A DNA stretch of 64,000 nt. Origin: Phormidesmis priestleyi ULC007. GTDB lineage: Bacteria > Cyanobacteriota > Cyanobacteriia > Leptolyngbyales > Leptolyngbyaceae. The DNA lies in the NCBI RefSeq assembly GCF_001895925.1, contig NZ_MPPI01000001.1:190099-254098 (forward strand). Reading direction: 5' to 3'. The notes under the pieces were generated by a model. It saw nothing but the letters and a program-made list of their open reading frames with translations, was not told the DNA's origin and searched no databases. Each line of letters starts with the position of its first letter. The first letter of the stretch is position 1. Both the position numbers and the translations under genes were made by a program. This document shows positions 54,602 through 61,031 of the stretch, piece by piece.

Positions 54602-54745
54602 AGCCAGAGCTTGAGTTTCCAAGTGTGGAGAGGCAAATAGCGCCGCAGTTTGAGTTTGATGAAAAGACTGTGATGCTTTCTGAACATTTGCGATCGCGAA
54701 CAGATGGGCGATCTCCAATTTACGGAGAGATAATCGCTGAGATGC

Positions 54746-54937
54746 TCAAGCCACTTTTCGCGCTTCTTCGGCTTCCAATTCAGCAAGTGTCGCGGCTGCA
54801 TCGGCTAAATATTGGGCAATATTGGCGCGAACGATCGGGTCCTGTTCTTGTTGCAGTTCTTTGGTGTGAAATAAAACTCGGAGACGGCATCCTTGAAGCG
54901 ACTCAGGATCAATAGCGTAGTGATGTGGCTCAGACAT
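54746..54937 (-). CDS. Small acidic helical protein, function unknown
   Basis: This 63-residue protein is MSEPHHYAIDPESLQGCRLR followed by a helical, Ala- and Glu-rich C-terminus (LADAAATLAELEAEEARKVA). It starts within the last 8 bp of the gene at 54930, so the two are likely translated together. I recognise no family; the size and pairing would suit a small regulatory or toxin-antitoxin-like pair, but nothing in the sequence proves it. Confidence 0.55.
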   Translation of the reverse strand: MSEPHHYAIDPESLQGCRLRVLFHTKELQQEQDPIVRANIAQYLADAAATLAELEAEEARKVA

Positions 54938-55289
54938 CTAAACTTTCCTCCTGTACTTCAATCCTGACCAATTGCCGTTCTGTTTCGGAATAGATAAATT
55001 TTACACCAATCATCAAGTTGCTCCCTAACAAAATATCTTGAACAGCTTCTGTTGGAGATAGCGAAGGGTGACGGGCAATGACAGCGTAATGACCAGGAGC
55101 AAGATTTGCAAAGATCGCGATCGCAGACCGTAGCATTACAGGTTGCTGGTCAACAAAAGCTCTGTCTGAAGTCAGCAAGATCAAAACGAGTTCGCCATCA
55201 ATGGAGGACATCCCTGCACCTTGCTGATTGCGGATCACAGCAATAATGTCTGCCAACTGGTTCACTCCTGTCTGAGATTGAATCTGCAC
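54930..55289 (-). CDS. Small protein of unknown function
   Basis: The GTG at 55289 gives about 119 residues (QIQSQTGVNQLADIIAVIRN...). The frame is open back to an ATG at 55382, but that part (RDRWLIHDRNSRRKHHSFSS) is rich in charged and repeat-like codons. The core ELVLILLTSDRAFVDQQPVM and FANLAPGHYAVIARHPSLSP look like a beta-rich soluble domain. I recognise no family. It overlaps the 63-residue protein downstream by 8 bp. Confidence 0.5.
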   Translation of the reverse strand: MQIQSQTGVNQLADIIAVIRNQQGAGMSSIDGELVLILLTSDRAFVDQQPVMLRSAIAIFANLAPGHYAVIARHPSLSPTEAVQDILLGSNLMIGVKFIYSETERQLVRIEVQEESLDV

Positions 55290-55663
55290 AGTAGATAAGA
55301 GTTTAGCGCAGGTTGAGCGTGATGAGAAACTGTGATGCTTTCTGCGAGAGTTGCGATCGTGAATCAACCAGCGATCGCGCACCGCAAAAAATATTGAAAT
55401 CCAATGCCCATCAACCCATCAACACGTCACCACCATCGTAGGGGCAGTGCCCCCGCGCCTGCCCGTGCCACCATCGCACCCACGAATATCTCTAATCTAC
55501 GATCGCCCAACCATCCTCCCTCCAATTTTTGACGTACGATCGCCCAACCATTTCCCTCACACGAATGTCTTCAAAGAACCAGCGCTGAGGGGTTCGTTTA
55601 CCCGATGGTTTAAGGGGCAACTACAGGGGAATTGCCCGTACAATTTGCCTGCATGGGCAGGGT
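55290..55663. other. Intergenic region with short repeats
   Basis: This gap contains a GTAGGGGCAGTGCCCCCGC repeat near 55438, two direct copies of ACGATCGCCCAACCAT about 38 bp apart (near 55500 and 55538), and a GGGCAA/TTGCCC hairpin near 55614-55638. The hairpin lies just beyond the caspase-FGE stop codon. A 94-codon frame here is not protein-like. Confidence 0.55.
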
Positions 55664-57649
55664 TTAAGGAGTCCTGGGAGCAGGGAGGAGGACGCGAAAA
55701 CCGATGTTGTTGTTGCGGTCATCGCGCCTAGTCCTGTTGCGATACGCAGAACGGCAGAAGATAGGGTTGTTGCTCCAAGATCCGCCGCGCAGCAGACGAA
55801 GTGTATTTTCGCGATCGCTATCCAGTTCCCAAACCCGACCATCAGCAGGAGCATTGTCATAATTCTCATGCCAAGGATCAGCACACCACTCCCAAACGTT
55901 TCCGTGCGTATCATATAGCCCAAACGCATTAGGCGGAAAGCTGCCTACATCCGTTGTTTGTTTTCGGTAAACTCCTTTGGGAGAATCGCCATAAGTCTCG
56001 TTGCCGTCGTAATTTACCAAATCTGTTGTAATCGTTTCCCCAAAATGAAACGGCGTTGTCGTTCCTGCGCGGCAAGCGTATTCCCATTCGGCTTCGCTGG
56101 GTAGACGATAGGTTTTCTCAGTTTTTTGGGAGATGCGATCGCAAAACTCAACGACCTCATCCCAAGACACTTGTTCAACAGGTCGATTTGCTCCTTTGAA
56201 GTTTGACGGGTCGGGATCGAGATCAAGATTGATTTTGGGGAGACTTGCGATCACGCTCCACTGCGCCTGAGTGATCGGATACTTGCTCATGAAGAAGGGT
56301 GCGATCGTCACCTTATGCGGTGGCTTTTCACCGTCATACTCCATCGAACCCATCGTAAATGAGCCGCCCGGAATCGAGACCATATCTAGCTTGAGAAAGT
56401 CTTCTGTAAAATATTCAGCACGACCGGGACGAGTTTGAGTTGTCAATTTCTTCTGCCCAAACAAGCCCGATTTCTGCTGCACTTCTAAGGTGACAATATC
56501 AAACTCGAACGTTGAGACAGTTCGCGGGGTTGGTGGAGCAGGACGAGGAATAGAAGGCTCAACTGGTGGAGGAGCAGGGCGAGATTTAAGGACGCGCTGC
56601 TCGATCGCGCCCACATTTTCATCCGTGAGATTGAGATCTTTTTGCAAGGCTTTGAGTTCTTGACGAGTCCGATCGCTTAACGGAGACTCGATCGCAATCT
56701 CTTCTTGCAAAACCTCTTCATATTCCTGCAAATTGCGCTGATGCTGGAGATAAGGTTCTAAAACTTCAGCCTCGATCGCGGCGGCTTCTGCGATCGTGAG
56801 GTTGAGAGACTGCGATCGCCGATTCAACACACGCCGCCCAGCAGGACGAATGATTCCGTCTTGGCTAAATTCCTCAACCGTCGATCGATACAGCAACTTT
56901 GGATCACTAATCGGCGCATTTGCCAGAAAGATTTTCTCACCCTCTTGCAGAATATATCGCTGAGGACGCATCGAAGGAGCGGCTTTGCTCACTCTAGCTT
57001 TGGCACAATCGTGCAACTCATTGACCGAAACCTTGCCATCGCGATCGAGATCCGCCGCCCCAGTTTCAATGCCTTCGACCAAATAGCGAGTATAGACCGC
57101 TAACTCTTCTCCCTTGCGCTCAAACGAATATTCCACCGCCGAAGACGACGTAAGCACAATCCGACCTTCGCCGCCCAACTGCTGCTTAAAGTCGATCGCC
57201 CCTTCTGCATCTCTAGCAATCATGCCCTCGCCAAACGCGCCACTGTTGCAACAATCTAAAATCACAACCTGGCGATTAGAGGTGCAGTTTTCCATCACAT
57301 CATGCACAAAACTAGCCGGAACAGCCGTTCCTTTGTTGAGCTTGCCTTGCGAATTTTTTCGGGTGCTGCAATTGGTGAAATAGAACTTGCCAAACTCATC
57401 CGTGATGCCATGCCCAGAAAAATAGAGCAGCAGCAGATCATCTTCATGGCAATTGTCGAACAAGGTCGAAATTTCATTTTGCATCGTCAGCAAATCAGGA
57501 TTTTGAAGCGGTGTCACCCGATCGAATCCGCCAATCTCTGGATGTTGCAAAACCCGCCGCATTGCCTCGACATCGTTCGCCGCCGCAGGCAATGGGTTTA
57601 ACCCCGGCTCATATTCACTCACCCCAATCAACAGCGCAACTTTTGCCAT
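55664..57649 (-). CDS. Caspase-FGE-sulfatase fusion protein with a DGR-like C-terminus
   Basis: The protein is 661 residues from the ATG at 57649 (MAKVALLIGVSEYEPGLNPL); further-upstream Met codons lie inside the neighbouring gene. A C14 caspase domain comes first, with His in YFSGHGI (residue 80) and Cys in LDCCNSG (about 134). An EF-hand-like DLDRDGKVSVNEL follows near 215. A linker with a Pro-rich stretch precedes a formylglycine-generating-enzyme-like (C-type-lectin fold) domain from about residue 420 (MVSIPGGSFTMGSMEYDGEK, RLPSEAEWEYACRAG, GLYDTHGNVWEWCAD). The end, GGSWSNNPIFCRSAYRNR through NNNIGFRV, resembles retroelement-diversified variable regions. The EACC1-like gene lies 4 bp upstream. 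The role is probably recognition coupled to proteolysis. Confidence 0.92.
   Translation of the reverse strand: MAKVALLIGVSEYEPGLNPLPAAANDVEAMRRVLQHPEIGGFDRVTPLQNPDLLTMQNEISTLFDNCHEDDLLLLYFSGHGITDEFGKFYFTNCSTRKNSQGKLNKGTAVPASFVHDVMENCTSNRQVVILDCCNSGAFGEGMIARDAEGAIDFKQQLGGEGRIVLTSSSAVEYSFERKGEELAVYTRYLVEGIETGAADLDRDGKVSVNELHDCAKARVSKAAPSMRPQRYILQEGEKIFLANAPISDPKLLYRSTVEEFSQDGIIRPAGRRVLNRRSQSLNLTIAEAAAIEAEVLEPYLQHQRNLQEYEEVLQEEIAIESPLSDRTRQELKALQKDLNLTDENVGAIEQRVLKSRPAPPPVEPSIPRPAPPTPRTVSTFEFDIVTLEVQQKSGLFGQKKLTTQTRPGRAEYFTEDFLKLDMVSIPGGSFTMGSMEYDGEKPPHKVTIAPFFMSKYPITQAQWSVIASLPKINLDLDPDPSNFKGANRPVEQVSWDEVVEFCDRISQKTEKTYRLPSEAEWEYACRAGTTTPFHFGETITTDLVNYDGNETYGDSPKGVYRKQTTDVGSFPPNAFGLYDTHGNVWEWCADPWHENYDNAPADGRVWELDSDRENTLRLLRGGSWSNNPIFCRSAYRNRTRRDDRNNNIGFRVLLPAPRTP
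55691..55789 (-). other. Candidate DGR variable region
   Basis: The final 33 codons of the FGE domain include many AAC codons (three in a row before ATCGGTTTTCGC). At other positions where such proteins carry AAC there are AGC, ATC, TTC, TAT, ACT or GAT, the pattern expected from adenine-specific mutagenesis. No template copy and no reverse transcriptase are in this window. Confidence 0.45.
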
Positions 57650-57653
57650 AGGG

Positions 57654-58034
57654 TTACATCGACTGCGAGAGCCGCTTAATCGTTTCTTCAGCCGCCGCCA
57701 GTTCTTCGCGACTGCTGACTTCAAGCTCTATTTCTCGACCATCGGCAAACTTGGCTTTAATTTTGATCGGTTTGTTTCCCAATCGATCGCCCACAAATCC
57801 AAATAAGTTTTTGAGGCTGGCAACACTCACTTCCGCTTGCAGCAACCCCCAGAGAAACGCACCCAGAGCGCGGTTTCCTTCGGGTGGATTGGGGTCGGCA
57901 ACGCGATCGACCTTAACGCCTTCTAGCGATCGCATCTGTTGCCAGAGAGTTTGCGTCAGTTTTTCCTGCTTTTCAGGGCTAAGATCCGGGTCTTGAAACG
58001 TAAAGGTAAGCTCAACATTGGGGGCGATCGTCAT
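57654..58034 (-). CDS. EACC1-like effector-associated protein
   Basis: The 126-residue protein has the features I know from effector-associated constant component 1: an N-terminal strand, a helix (EKLTQTLWQQMRSLEGVKVD), a Gly- and Leu-rich middle (RALGAFLWGLLQAEVSVASL), then GNKPIKIKAKFADGREIELE and a final helix (EELAAAEETIKRLSQSM). EACC1 genes are adaptor components next to caspase, trypsin or other effectors in predicted conflict systems. Here the caspase-FGE gene follows after 4 bp, exactly that arrangement. The match is by eye, and molecular function is unknown. Confidence 0.72.
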   Translation of the reverse strand: MTIAPNVELTFTFQDPDLSPEKQEKLTQTLWQQMRSLEGVKVDRVADPNPPEGNRALGAFLWGLLQAEVSVASLKNLFGFVGDRLGNKPIKIKAKFADGREIELEVSSREELAAAEETIKRLSQSM

Positions 58035-58230
58035 GGCAAAATCTACATCTAACGGCGAGGACTAGACTGAATTCTAACCTTTCTCTATAGAATTCACGAA
58101 GCCTTAAGATTGCCCTGAATTTTTACTCATTGATGCGATCGCTAAATGCGCTATGCGTCGTTACCTTCTTCACTCCAAGGCCTGTCCTGTATCATCCTGC
58201 TCATCGAGATCGATCGCTTCCATCATCTAC

Positions 58231-58413
58231 TTAATGCTTCTCTCTCCCCTCAGTTTCAGAAAGGGTTTCTAGATAAAGTTCGACGGCTTCTTTGATATTG
58301 GCTTGCACTTCTTCCAAAGTGTCTCCTTGCGTTTGGCAACCTTTAAGCTGCGGACAGTAAGCATAGTAGCCACTCGCATCTTTCTCAATCACAACGTTGA
58401 TTTGGTAAGACAT
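58231..58413 (-). CDS. HicB-family antitoxin-like protein
   Basis: The 60-residue protein is the short HicB form: INVVIEKDASGYYAYCPQLK gives the partial RNase-H-like fold, and GCQTQGDTLEEVQANIKEAV the following helix. HicB normally binds and silences the HicA mRNA interferase. The DNA-binding extension of long HicB proteins is absent. No HicA gene is visible on either side within 200 bp, so it is an orphan. It is divergent from the Uma2 gene. Confidence 0.88.
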   Translation of the reverse strand: MSYQINVVIEKDASGYYAYCPQLKGCQTQGDTLEEVQANIKEAVELYLETLSETEGREKH

Positions 58414-58572
58414 AAGATTGTCGTTCTGTCCAAACTAGCAAATTATCCTACTCTTCATTTTAGAAGCGATCGCCAGCTTACATAGATGATTTGTGGGAAA
58501 GCTGCCGCAAACCAGCATACGCTCTCGCCCTTCAGTCAAAGCTATAATGCAACCACAGAGTTTGAACCTGCC

Positions 58573-59169
58573 ATGACGCAACTGCTTGTTCGCCACTCAA
58601 CCGATCAGCACCTCATTCACCACGGGCGGACGTGGGAACAATTTAAGCTGATCGAACAAGGGTTTGAAGATTCTCCAGGGGTGCGGCTATATTACTACGA
58701 TGGTACGATCGAGATTCTTATGCTAGGGCAAGACCACGAATTTTTCAGCCGAGTAATTGGGCTACTCATTAGTGTTTTCTTTGCTGAAATCGGCGTTGAG
58801 TTCGCTCCTACAGGCGCAATGACTCAAGAGAGAAAGGGAATCGTATCGGCACAAGCAGACGAATCTTATTGCATCGGAGACTTGAAGTCTAAGCCAGATT
58901 TGTCGATCGAAGTCATCTTCACCAGTGGCGGCCCCAACAAATTAGATCGATATAGAGCGCTTGAAATGCCTGAAGTTTGGTTTTGGGAAGATGGATTATT
59001 TAGCCTACATCACTTGCGAGAAAATGAGTATGAGCGAATCGAGCGCAGCGAGTTACCTCACCTAAAGCGTCTCGATATCAGTGTCTTAACCGAATGCGTT
59101 CTGATCGCTCAAACCTCCAGACTTGAAGCGATCCAAAAAATCAGAGCCGCAGCCGCTGAAAGTACCTGA
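58573..59169 (+). CDS. Uma2 family endonuclease (DUF820)
   Basis: The protein is 198 residues from the ATG at 58573 (MTQLLVRHSTDQHLIHHGRT); the frame is open to 58486, but those residues are not family-like. The PD-(D/E)xK core is seen as KPDLSIEVIFTSGGPNKLDR, with E-x-hydrophobic before the next strand, and PEVWFWEDGLFSLHHLREN follows. Uma2 genes occur in dozens of copies in cyanobacteria; their substrates are unknown, and links to mobile elements have been proposed. A tandem repeat follows the stop codon. Confidence 0.9.
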   Translation: MTQLLVRHSTDQHLIHHGRTWEQFKLIEQGFEDSPGVRLYYYDGTIEILMLGQDHEFFSRVIGLLISVFFAEIGVEFAPTGAMTQERKGIVSAQADESYCIGDLKSKPDLSIEVIFTSGGPNKLDRYRALEMPEVWFWEDGLFSLHHLRENEYERIERSELPHLKRLDISVLTECVLIAQTSRLEAIQKIRAAAAEST

Positions 59170-59195
59170 AGCCGAGATGAGGACATTCAACTATC

Positions 59196-59341
59196 GATAG
59201 ACGAGTCGATAGAAGGAATTGACTGTGCAAAATACTGAATTGACGAGTCAATAGAACGAATTGACTGTGCAAAACACTGAATAGACGGGTCAATAGAACG
59301 AATAGACAGGTCAATAGAACGAATTAACTGTAGATGACACT
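59196..59341. repeat. Degenerate tandem repeat, 42-bp unit built from 21-bp halves
   Basis: Three units (59196-59236, 59237-59278, 59279-59341) repeat GAATTGACGAGTCAATAGAA followed by CGAATTGACTGTGCAAAACA. The third has an extra 21-bp half, so lengths are 41, 42 and 63 bp. The half-unit contains TTGACGAGTCAA, a near palindrome. No coding role is evident. Confidence 0.85.
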
Positions 59342-59394
59342 GAATTAAGGCATGAATGGATGGAACAGGCAGGGCGATCGCTTCCCTGGAACGA

Positions 59395-61031
59395 TTATTG
59401 AGCGCGCCTCCAGTCATGCAAGGGAGAATAGAGCGATTGGTAACGATGCCAAGCAGCTTCTAGCTCTGGGGTGACAGTGTTTGGAGTAATGACTCGATCG
59501 TAACCCGCCTCCAGCTTGGGAACAGTAGAAAGGCTGCGGTAGATCTCCGTTCCTAACCCTGCTAAAATTGCCGCCCCTCGACTAGAAGCCGCAGACATAG
59601 TTAGAGGATGAAGCGGCACTTGCAGCACATCTGCAATCAGTTGTTGCCATACAGGATCGATCGTACCGCCGCCTGTCAGATTGAGCGCTGGCACCGAAAT
59701 GTTGATCGCCGTCATTGCCTCTAAACCTTGCTTCAGCGAAAACGCAACGCCTTCTAGCGCCGCCCGCATTAAGTGCGATCGGGAGTGGTGCAGCCCCAAA
59801 CCAACCCAGGCACCTCGCGCATTAGGATCAAGATGCGGCGTTCGCTCTCCGGTCAAATAAGGTAAAAACGTCAGTCCTTCACACCCCGCAGGAACGGCAA
59901 ACGCTTGAGTATAGACTTGCTGCCACGTCAGACCCAACATATCGCGCACCCATTCCAATGCCAAGCCAGCATTTTGGATGGCGGCGAGTGCATACCACTG
60001 TTGAGGCAACGCCGATCGATACAAATGAGTGTGTTTTCGAGGATCAGCGATCGGCTGATCGCGAAGGCTAACGATTTGGGCACCTGTTCCGATCGTCAGT
60101 TGCACTACTCCCGGATTCACAACACCACTTCCGAGAAGAGCGGCGGCTGTGTCGGCGGCTCCAGTGACTACAGGCAAACCAGGAGGCAAGTCTAGATGTT
60201 CTGAGGCTTCGGGGGTTAGATGTCCCGCAATACTGCTAGACGGAATTAGTTTAGGAAGCCAATCCGATCGCAGATTCAACGCATCGATGATGGTGGATGA
60301 CCAGCGGTCTTTGCTGACGTTATAAAGGGTGCGACCTCTACCTGATACTAAAGTGACTCAAGCCTCCTGCTGATAAGGTTTTTGAACGATTTCACAGTAG
60401 TCTTTTTGATTATTCATTGATCAATTTTACAGGCACTCAAAACCCTTATGGAGCAAAAGGTAATCGGTTTTTTCCAATGTATCGGATGGAGGTCGCACCC
60501 GTTATAAAGCAGTGTGCCTGATGCGTCGGAGGGGTCTGTGGCGACTTCTCCCGTCAGACGAAATCGCAGCCAATCTTTCGGCTGAAGTGCCCATCGAGCG
60601 TTGGTGTAAATATCTCGTTCATATTTGCGAAACCAGAGCAAACTCGTTCCTGCCATTCCGGTCGTGATTGGGTTGGCGAGTTTAGAGTGCAGACCCGACC
60701 CGATCGCGTGATAGGCGTAGAGCATTTCGCTCGATCGCGTATCTGCCCAAAGAATTGCCGGGTAGAGCGGTTGGGCGTTTGCATCGGTCAAGACGACTCC
60801 GTGCATCTGCCCCGATAGCCCGATCGCTCGAACATGTTTTCGGTGATCTTGAACCGCAGACTTAACGGCGATCGCCACCGATGCCCACCAATCTAACGGA
60901 TTGATCTCCGCCCATCCCGGTTTAGGCGTTTGCACCAAATAGCGACTCGACGATTCAGCAATGATTTTGCCATCATTGCCCAGCAACACCGCCTTCACCG
61001 AACTTGTTCCTAAATCAATGCCCAGCAGCAT
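59395..61031 (-). pseudogene. xylB: Xylulokinase (FGGY kinase) gene split by an inverted-repeat element
   Basis: The N-terminal part (from the ATG at 61031) reads MLLGIDLGTSSVKAVLLGND, with LSGQMHGVVLTDANAQPLYP and ILWADTRSSEM, as in xylulokinases. It runs to ASGTLLYN and then into the element, where it stops at 60414. The C-terminal part continues after the element as NVSKDRWSSTIIDALNLRSD with GAADTAAALLGSG (catalytic Asp region) and NLTGGGTIDPVWQQLIADVL. Deleting the 172-bp element and one 10-bp target copy (182 bp) restores one continuous frame of the length typical for the family, about 485 residues. The enzyme would have phosphorylated D-xylulose; it is most likely inactive now. Confidence 0.92.
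60328..60499. mobile_element. 172-bp MITE-like element inside xylB, with 10-bp target duplication
   Basis: The ends GGTGCGACCTC (60328-60338) and GAGGTCGCACC (60489-60499) are perfect inverted repeats, and the similarity extends to 21 bp with three mismatches. Both sides carry the direct repeat CGTTATAAAG (60318-60327 and 60500-60509). The inside is AT-rich and has no gene. A transposase acting in trans must have moved it; a 10-bp duplication would fit IS4-like families, but I cannot name the parent. Confidence 0.93.

What the first reader, a model, noticed from the sequence alone, without database searches (positions are those of the whole stretch)
55691..55789. C-terminal variable-region-like sequence at the end of the caspase-FGE protein
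The final segment (GGSWSNNPIFCRSAYRNR through NNNIGFRV) matches the form of diversity-generating retroelement targets: an FGE/C-type-lectin fold, an AAC-rich stretch, and substituted codons where AAC is usual (AGC, ATC, TTC, TAT, ACT, GAT). A short hairpin lies just after the stop. If diversified, a protease effector would have a hypervariable recognition surface. There is no template or reverse transcriptase in the window, so the machinery would have to act from elsewhere.
Basis: partly seen in the sequence, partly recalled or inferred. Interest (0 to 1): 0.75.

Follow-up and report, generated by a model that had tools for sequence, protein, structure and literature searches.

The report
Orphaned hypervariable tip on caspase protein
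The end of this cyanobacterial caspase-like protein is descended from a stretch that related bacteria rewrite at random with a reverse-transcriptase machine, but neither that machine nor its template was found in this genome, so the stretch is most likely a frozen leftover and not an active diversity generator.

Summary
The last 33 codons (55691-55789, minus strand) of a caspase C14 + FGE-sulfatase protein are a genuine relative of diversity-generating-retroelement (DGR) variable regions. Genomes of the same family carry DGR reverse transcriptases flanked by template repeats 72-80% identical to it in DNA. It also carries the variable-region 3' boundary (AGGACT; templates have AGTACT/AGCACT). 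The fold matches the DGR protein TvpA.

In this genome (98.97% complete, 118 contigs) no template repeat and no DGR reverse transcriptase was found. The same enzyme search recovers 30-46-residue relics in relatives. The sister species also lacks the machinery, and it lacks the whole ~4.8 kb segment carrying the caspase locus. Relatives assembled in 3-5 contigs show the same orphan state. Best explanation: an orphaned, now conventionally inherited variable region on the effector of an EACC1-like/caspase conflict pair. DGR-targeted caspase proteins and remote or orphan targets in cyanobacteria are already published.

Two claims fail: the downstream hairpin is chance-level, and A-biased change is not significant here (4/21 template-A columns changed versus 5/51 others, p=0.24). 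Oddly, this is the most template-like coding variable region of those compared.

The parts
55691..55789 (-). Orphan DGR-type variable region, 33 codons RGGSWSNNPIFCRSAYRNRTRRDDRNNNIGFRV
   Evidence: 72-80% DNA identity to template repeats of family relatives, most of them beside a DGR RT; 5 of 51 non-A template columns changed, as in other variable regions
55670..55690 (-). 3' boundary of the variable region (CTCCTCCCTGCTCCCAGGACT), IMH-like, with AGGACT as in variable regions
   Evidence: 30 of 43 VR-class segments have AGGA(C/T/A)T; 14 of 15 templates have AGCACTC or AGTACTC
55664..56437 (-). FGE-sulfatase / C-type-lectin-fold domain carrying the variable region at its C terminus
   Evidence: Pfam PF03781 E 5.4e-57; PDB 2y3c TvpA E 2.6e-22, PvdO 5hha E 6.8e-42; tree
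55664..57724 (-). Caspase (C14) + FGE effector protein, 686 aa; candidate catalytic His105 (SGHG) and Cys158 (LDCC)
57654..58034 (-). Small upstream partner gene, 126 aa, EACC1-like, overlapping the caspase ORF start
   Evidence: found next to the caspase gene in many relatives; PF19953 EACC1 E 0.026, below cut-off; 7 of 13 homologs match, best 1.6e-4
54650..59425 (.). Segment of about 4.8 kb holding the pair plus an Uma2-family gene; absent from the sister species at the same site (ends approximate)
   Evidence: sister locus L103 joins the cupin and FGGY-kinase flanks directly; Uma2 by Pfam

Best explanation
This is an orphan variable region. The FGE (C-type-lectin-fold) C terminus of a caspase effector was once a target of a cyanobacterial-type DGR, whose reverse transcriptase copied an AAC-rich template with errors at A and wrote the copy into the 3' end of the gene. 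That descent is well supported. The gene now sits in a genome without a detectable template or DGR reverse transcriptase, either because the cassette was lost or because the ~4.8 kb caspase segment arrived without it. The stretch is therefore most likely inherited like any other sequence and fixed in one variant (inferred). The protein most likely works as a sensor-effector: the fixed FGE surface binds a ligand and the caspase domain, paired with the EACC1-like small protein, acts as protease. That last step is inferred from family knowledge only.
For: Template/variable-region pairs with DGR RTs (IGNLTSQ motif) occur in same-family genomes and match the segment. At non-A template columns the segment differs at 5 of 51, inside the range of other variable regions (0-11), whereas the divergent FGE protein L097 differs at 14. 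The 3' boundary is VR-type. The fold matches TvpA. No template by three different queries. The DGR RT query gives only 26-28% matches to RTs of group II intron type, while the same search finds relics of 30 and 46 residues in G027 and G011. One further RVT_1 hit is a DRT4/6-type defence RT. VR-bearing genes without a DGR RT also occur in relatives assembled in 3-5 contigs (G016, G018, G020). The paralog on C55 and its sister-species copy are 98-100% identical over most of the gene and share most variable codons. The window gene's FGE domain groups with genes of G029, G000 and G001, in none of which a cassette was found.
Against: The assembly is a draft (118 contigs, about 1% missing), and cassettes in relatives can lie on short contigs (G012 contigs of 3.8 kb). 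A-specific change is not significant in the window sequence itself (p=0.24). Direct evidence of freezing for this very gene is lacking, because the sister species has no copy.
Confidence: 0.75

Rival explanations
1. The variable region is still active: the DGR cassette exists in this organism but lies in an unassembled stretch or on a plasmid missing from the assembly, and diversifies the gene in trans.
For: Trans-acting targets are reported in Thiohalocapsa (PMC10907252) and cyanobacterial DGRs occur on plasmids (PMC7517822; plasmid matches of 72-82% identity).
Against: No template, RT or relic in 98.97% of the genome, none in the sister species. The window variable region is the least changed of those compared, not what frequent rewriting would leave.
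Confidence: 0.15
2. An ordinary FGE-domain C terminus without DGR history; the GGSW...CRSA...GFRV motif is simply the conserved end of the family.
For: The framework residues are shared across FGE proteins, and a Nostocales clade keeps a conserved non-varying version. A-bias alone is not significant.
Against: The similarity is at DNA level to non-coding templates next to DGR RTs, including synonymous positions. Conserved Nostocales versions and L097 differ from the template consensus at 11-19 of 51 non-A columns, the window at 5. The boundary is VR-type.
Confidence: 0.06
3. A variant of the best explanation: the variable region was last overwritten from a template with little or no mutagenesis (or by plain gene conversion from a TR), leaving a near-template sequence in a coding gene.
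For: Only 4 of 21 template-A columns changed; coding VRs of relatives have 7-17 (mean 11.9) and those of named cyanobacteria at least 6; templates have 0-4. The binomial chance at the usual rate is 0.0005. The last three AAC codons are intact.
Against: Templates were recognised partly by their Asn-rich reading, so the contrast is partly built in. The cognate template is unknown; one sequence only.
Confidence: 0.15

Closest known systems
Cyanobacterial DGR variable proteins with orthocaspase-CLec architecture (PMC7517822)
   Same: N-terminal caspase, C-terminal FGE/CLec domain, variable region at the 3' end, sequence homologous to templates; remote and remnant targets such as all3226 are described there
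   Different: No template and no RT found anywhere in this genome; unusually few template-A positions changed
EACC1-caspase two-gene conflict system, 'System 4' (PMC7159879)
   Same: 5' small gene followed by a gene with N-terminal caspase and a variable C-terminal domain
   Different: EACC1 match is below the Pfam cut-off; the system is described as mainly actinobacterial; the C-terminal domain here is a DGR-derived FGE
Treponema denticola TvpA (PDB 2y3c)
   Same: C-type-lectin/FGE fold with a variable region at the C terminus (phmmer E 2.6e-22)
   Different: Variable protein with its own DGR; no caspase domain

Membership tests
Diversity-generating retroelement (complete, active) | DGR-type reverse transcriptase in the genome | tested here: not met
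   Only group II intron-like and DRT-type RTs in the assembly
Diversity-generating retroelement (complete, active) | Template repeat near-identical to the variable region | tested here: not met
   Only self and a diverged coding paralog
Diversity-generating retroelement (complete, active) | Variation between individuals confined to template-A positions | not testable with these tools
   No strain reads; the sister species lacks the gene
DGR variable region (descent) | DNA homology to RT-adjacent templates, at the 3' end of a CLec-fold gene | tested here: met
DGR variable region (descent) | Differences from the template concentrated at template A | tested here: inconclusive
   4/21 A columns versus 5/51 others, p=0.24 for the window; strongly met for most related variable regions; cognate template missing
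DGR variable region (descent) | Variable-region-type 3' boundary (IMH) distinct from the template's | tested here: met
   AGGACT
DGR variable region (descent) | Downstream hairpin/cruciform | tested here: not met
   5-bp stem at chance level; no conserved hairpin after related VRs either, so not a defining feature in this family
EACC1-caspase conflict system | 3' gene with N-terminal caspase domain | tested here: met
EACC1-caspase conflict system | 5' gene encoding EACC1 | tested here: inconclusive
   E 0.026, 15 bits against a cut-off of 23.6; 7 of 13 homologs match at E up to 1
EACC1-caspase conflict system | Transmembrane helix in EACC1 | not tested
   -

The most novel reading that the evidence does not exclude
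A DGR target that was reset to an almost template-identical state and then fixed when the machinery was lost, so that the coding gene preserves a record of the vanished template on the effector of an EACC1-like/caspase system.
Probability: 0.15. Interest if true: 0.5.

Novelty: new member of a known kind. Interest (0 to 1): 0.4.

Why it matters
It shows how a hypervariable recognition surface on a cell-death-type protease can outlive the machine that made it. In this family of cyanobacteria orphan variable regions are common, also in genomes assembled in 3-5 contigs, so presence of a variable region should not be read as an active DGR. It also offers natural sets (active, orphan and long-fixed versions of one domain) for testing whether one fixed variant is useful.

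Tried and rejected
Template search in the own genome with the window segment, with the G024 template and with the G017 template plus flank: nothing new. A 24-nt hit at contig C50 lies in an unrelated small gene. bAvd-type accessory protein PF05635: none; little weight, since I did not check whether cassettes of this clade carry one. Hairpin: chance level. Phages: no match. Plasmids: seven cyanobacterial matches, 72-82% identical, three under annotated genes, none of this genome. The order-level search covered the same 42 genomes. Repeats at the ends of the 4.8 kb segment: none that pair the two ends. Structure prediction was not run because the fold was clear from sequence.

Full report
WHAT IS THERE. 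The minus-strand ORF 55664-57724 codes for a 686-aa protein with an N-terminal caspase C14 domain and a C-terminal FGE-sulfatase domain. Its end, RGGSWSNNPIFCRSAYRNRTRRDDRNNNIGFRV, lies at 55691-55789. Six of the gene's seventeen AAC codons are in these 33 codons, although A content is not raised. The FGE domain matches PvdO and the DGR variable protein TvpA among solved structures.

IT DESCENDS FROM A DGR VARIABLE REGION. A DNA search of 42 same-family genomes found matches to the segment in 18, the own genome included. The best are AAC-rich repeats of 72-80% identity. I classed fifteen segments as template-like and treated eleven of them as RT-linked; for ten, a DGR-type reverse transcriptase with the IGNLTSQ motif was read in the same locus, and L029 was taken as a template from its pairing with a variable region on the same contig. 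In such loci neighbouring FGE genes carry variable regions that differ from the template mainly at A, the standard DGR signature. Against a consensus of these eleven templates, the window differs at 5 of 51 non-A columns; 41 other variable regions differ at 0-11 (mean 3.1), while the divergent FGE gene L097 differs at 14 and a conserved Nostocales type at 11-19. Fourteen of fifteen templates are followed by AGCACTC or AGTACTC, 30 of 43 variable-region-class segments by AGGACT or close variants; the window has AGGACT. Framework similarity alone could be the ordinary end of the FGE family, but DNA-level similarity to templates, including synonymous sites, and the boundary type cannot easily be so explained.

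THE MACHINERY IS NOT FOUND. Three template queries found only the segment itself and the diverged coding paralog on contig C55. The RT domain occurs six times in the assembly: five look like group II intron enzymes or fragments by sequence, and one is a DRT4/6-type defence RT. A DGR RT query gives 26-28% identity at best, whereas it finds 30- and 46-residue relics in other genomes. The assembly is a draft with 98.97% completeness, so a missed cassette remains possible. Relatives assembled in 3-5 contigs (G016, G018, G020) also carry such variable regions without a DGR RT, so the orphan state is not just an assembly effect.

IS IT FROZEN? The window gene has no copy at the same site in the sister species: there, the flanking cupin and FGGY-kinase genes are joined directly, and about 4.8 kb (roughly 54650-59425) is missing. 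Whether this is an insertion here or a deletion there is open; no paired terminal repeats were found. The second VR-bearing gene of this genome (C55) is shared with the sister species, and within the variable region the two differ only at a few places while most variable codons agree, which speaks against frequent rewriting in this lineage. The nearest ortholog, in Myxacorys californica, is 81-94% identical per 90-nt block over the small gene and the caspase part but 60 of 99 nt (15 of 33 aa) in the segment, so the segment diversified or was replaced after those lineages split. A Nostocales clade of 38 sequences keeps one conserved form of the same stretch, a precedent for long-term fixation, whether or not it was ever a target.

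AN UNEXPLAINED DETAIL. The window changes only 4 of 21 template-A columns. Other coding variable regions of the family change 7-17, those of named cyanobacteria at least 6; templates themselves 0-4. So A-bias is not significant for the window (p=0.24), and it is the most template-like coding variable region compared. Templates were picked partly by their Asn content, so part of this contrast is built in; the boundary type and coding context still mark the window as a variable region. Light mutagenesis, conversion from a template, or chance are all possible.

CONTEXT. A 126-aa gene overlaps the caspase ORF start upstream, and homologs precede the caspase gene in many relatives. It resembles EACC1 below the Pfam threshold. 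This fits the EACC1-caspase two-gene conflict system of PMC7159879, with a DGR-derived FGE as the C-terminal part. DGR-targeted caspase-CLec proteins, remote targets and remnants without RT in cyanobacteria are published (PMC7517822), as is trans diversification (PMC10907252).

VERDICT. A real DGR-derived variable region, most likely orphaned and inactive; a new member of a known kind.

Noticed in passing
L006 (G000:C48:127365-127859): The genome encodes a defence-type reverse transcriptase matching PADLOC Drt6/Drt4 (E 2e-174), unrelated to DGRs.
   Followed up: partly
L038 (G041:C150) and L033 (G032:C14): Template-repeat-like sequences with the conserved downstream template flank in genomes where no DGR reverse transcriptase was found: possible orphan templates.
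   Followed up: partly
L044 (G016:C1) and L040 first copy (G022:C82): Coding variable regions followed by the template-type downstream flank (GTCAGAA...GTCCAG), suggesting recombination between target and template.
   Followed up: no
L132-L192, Nostocales loci: A clade of 38 FGE sequences with a conserved end (SFSPxLCRSASRSWNExDGGLRICGFRV), a fixed form of the same stretch.
   Followed up: partly
window 59174-59383: A 21-bp-period direct repeat (GAATTGACxxGTCAATAGAAC-like) lies between the Uma2 gene and the FGGY kinase, next to the edge of the segment absent from the sister species.
   Followed up: no
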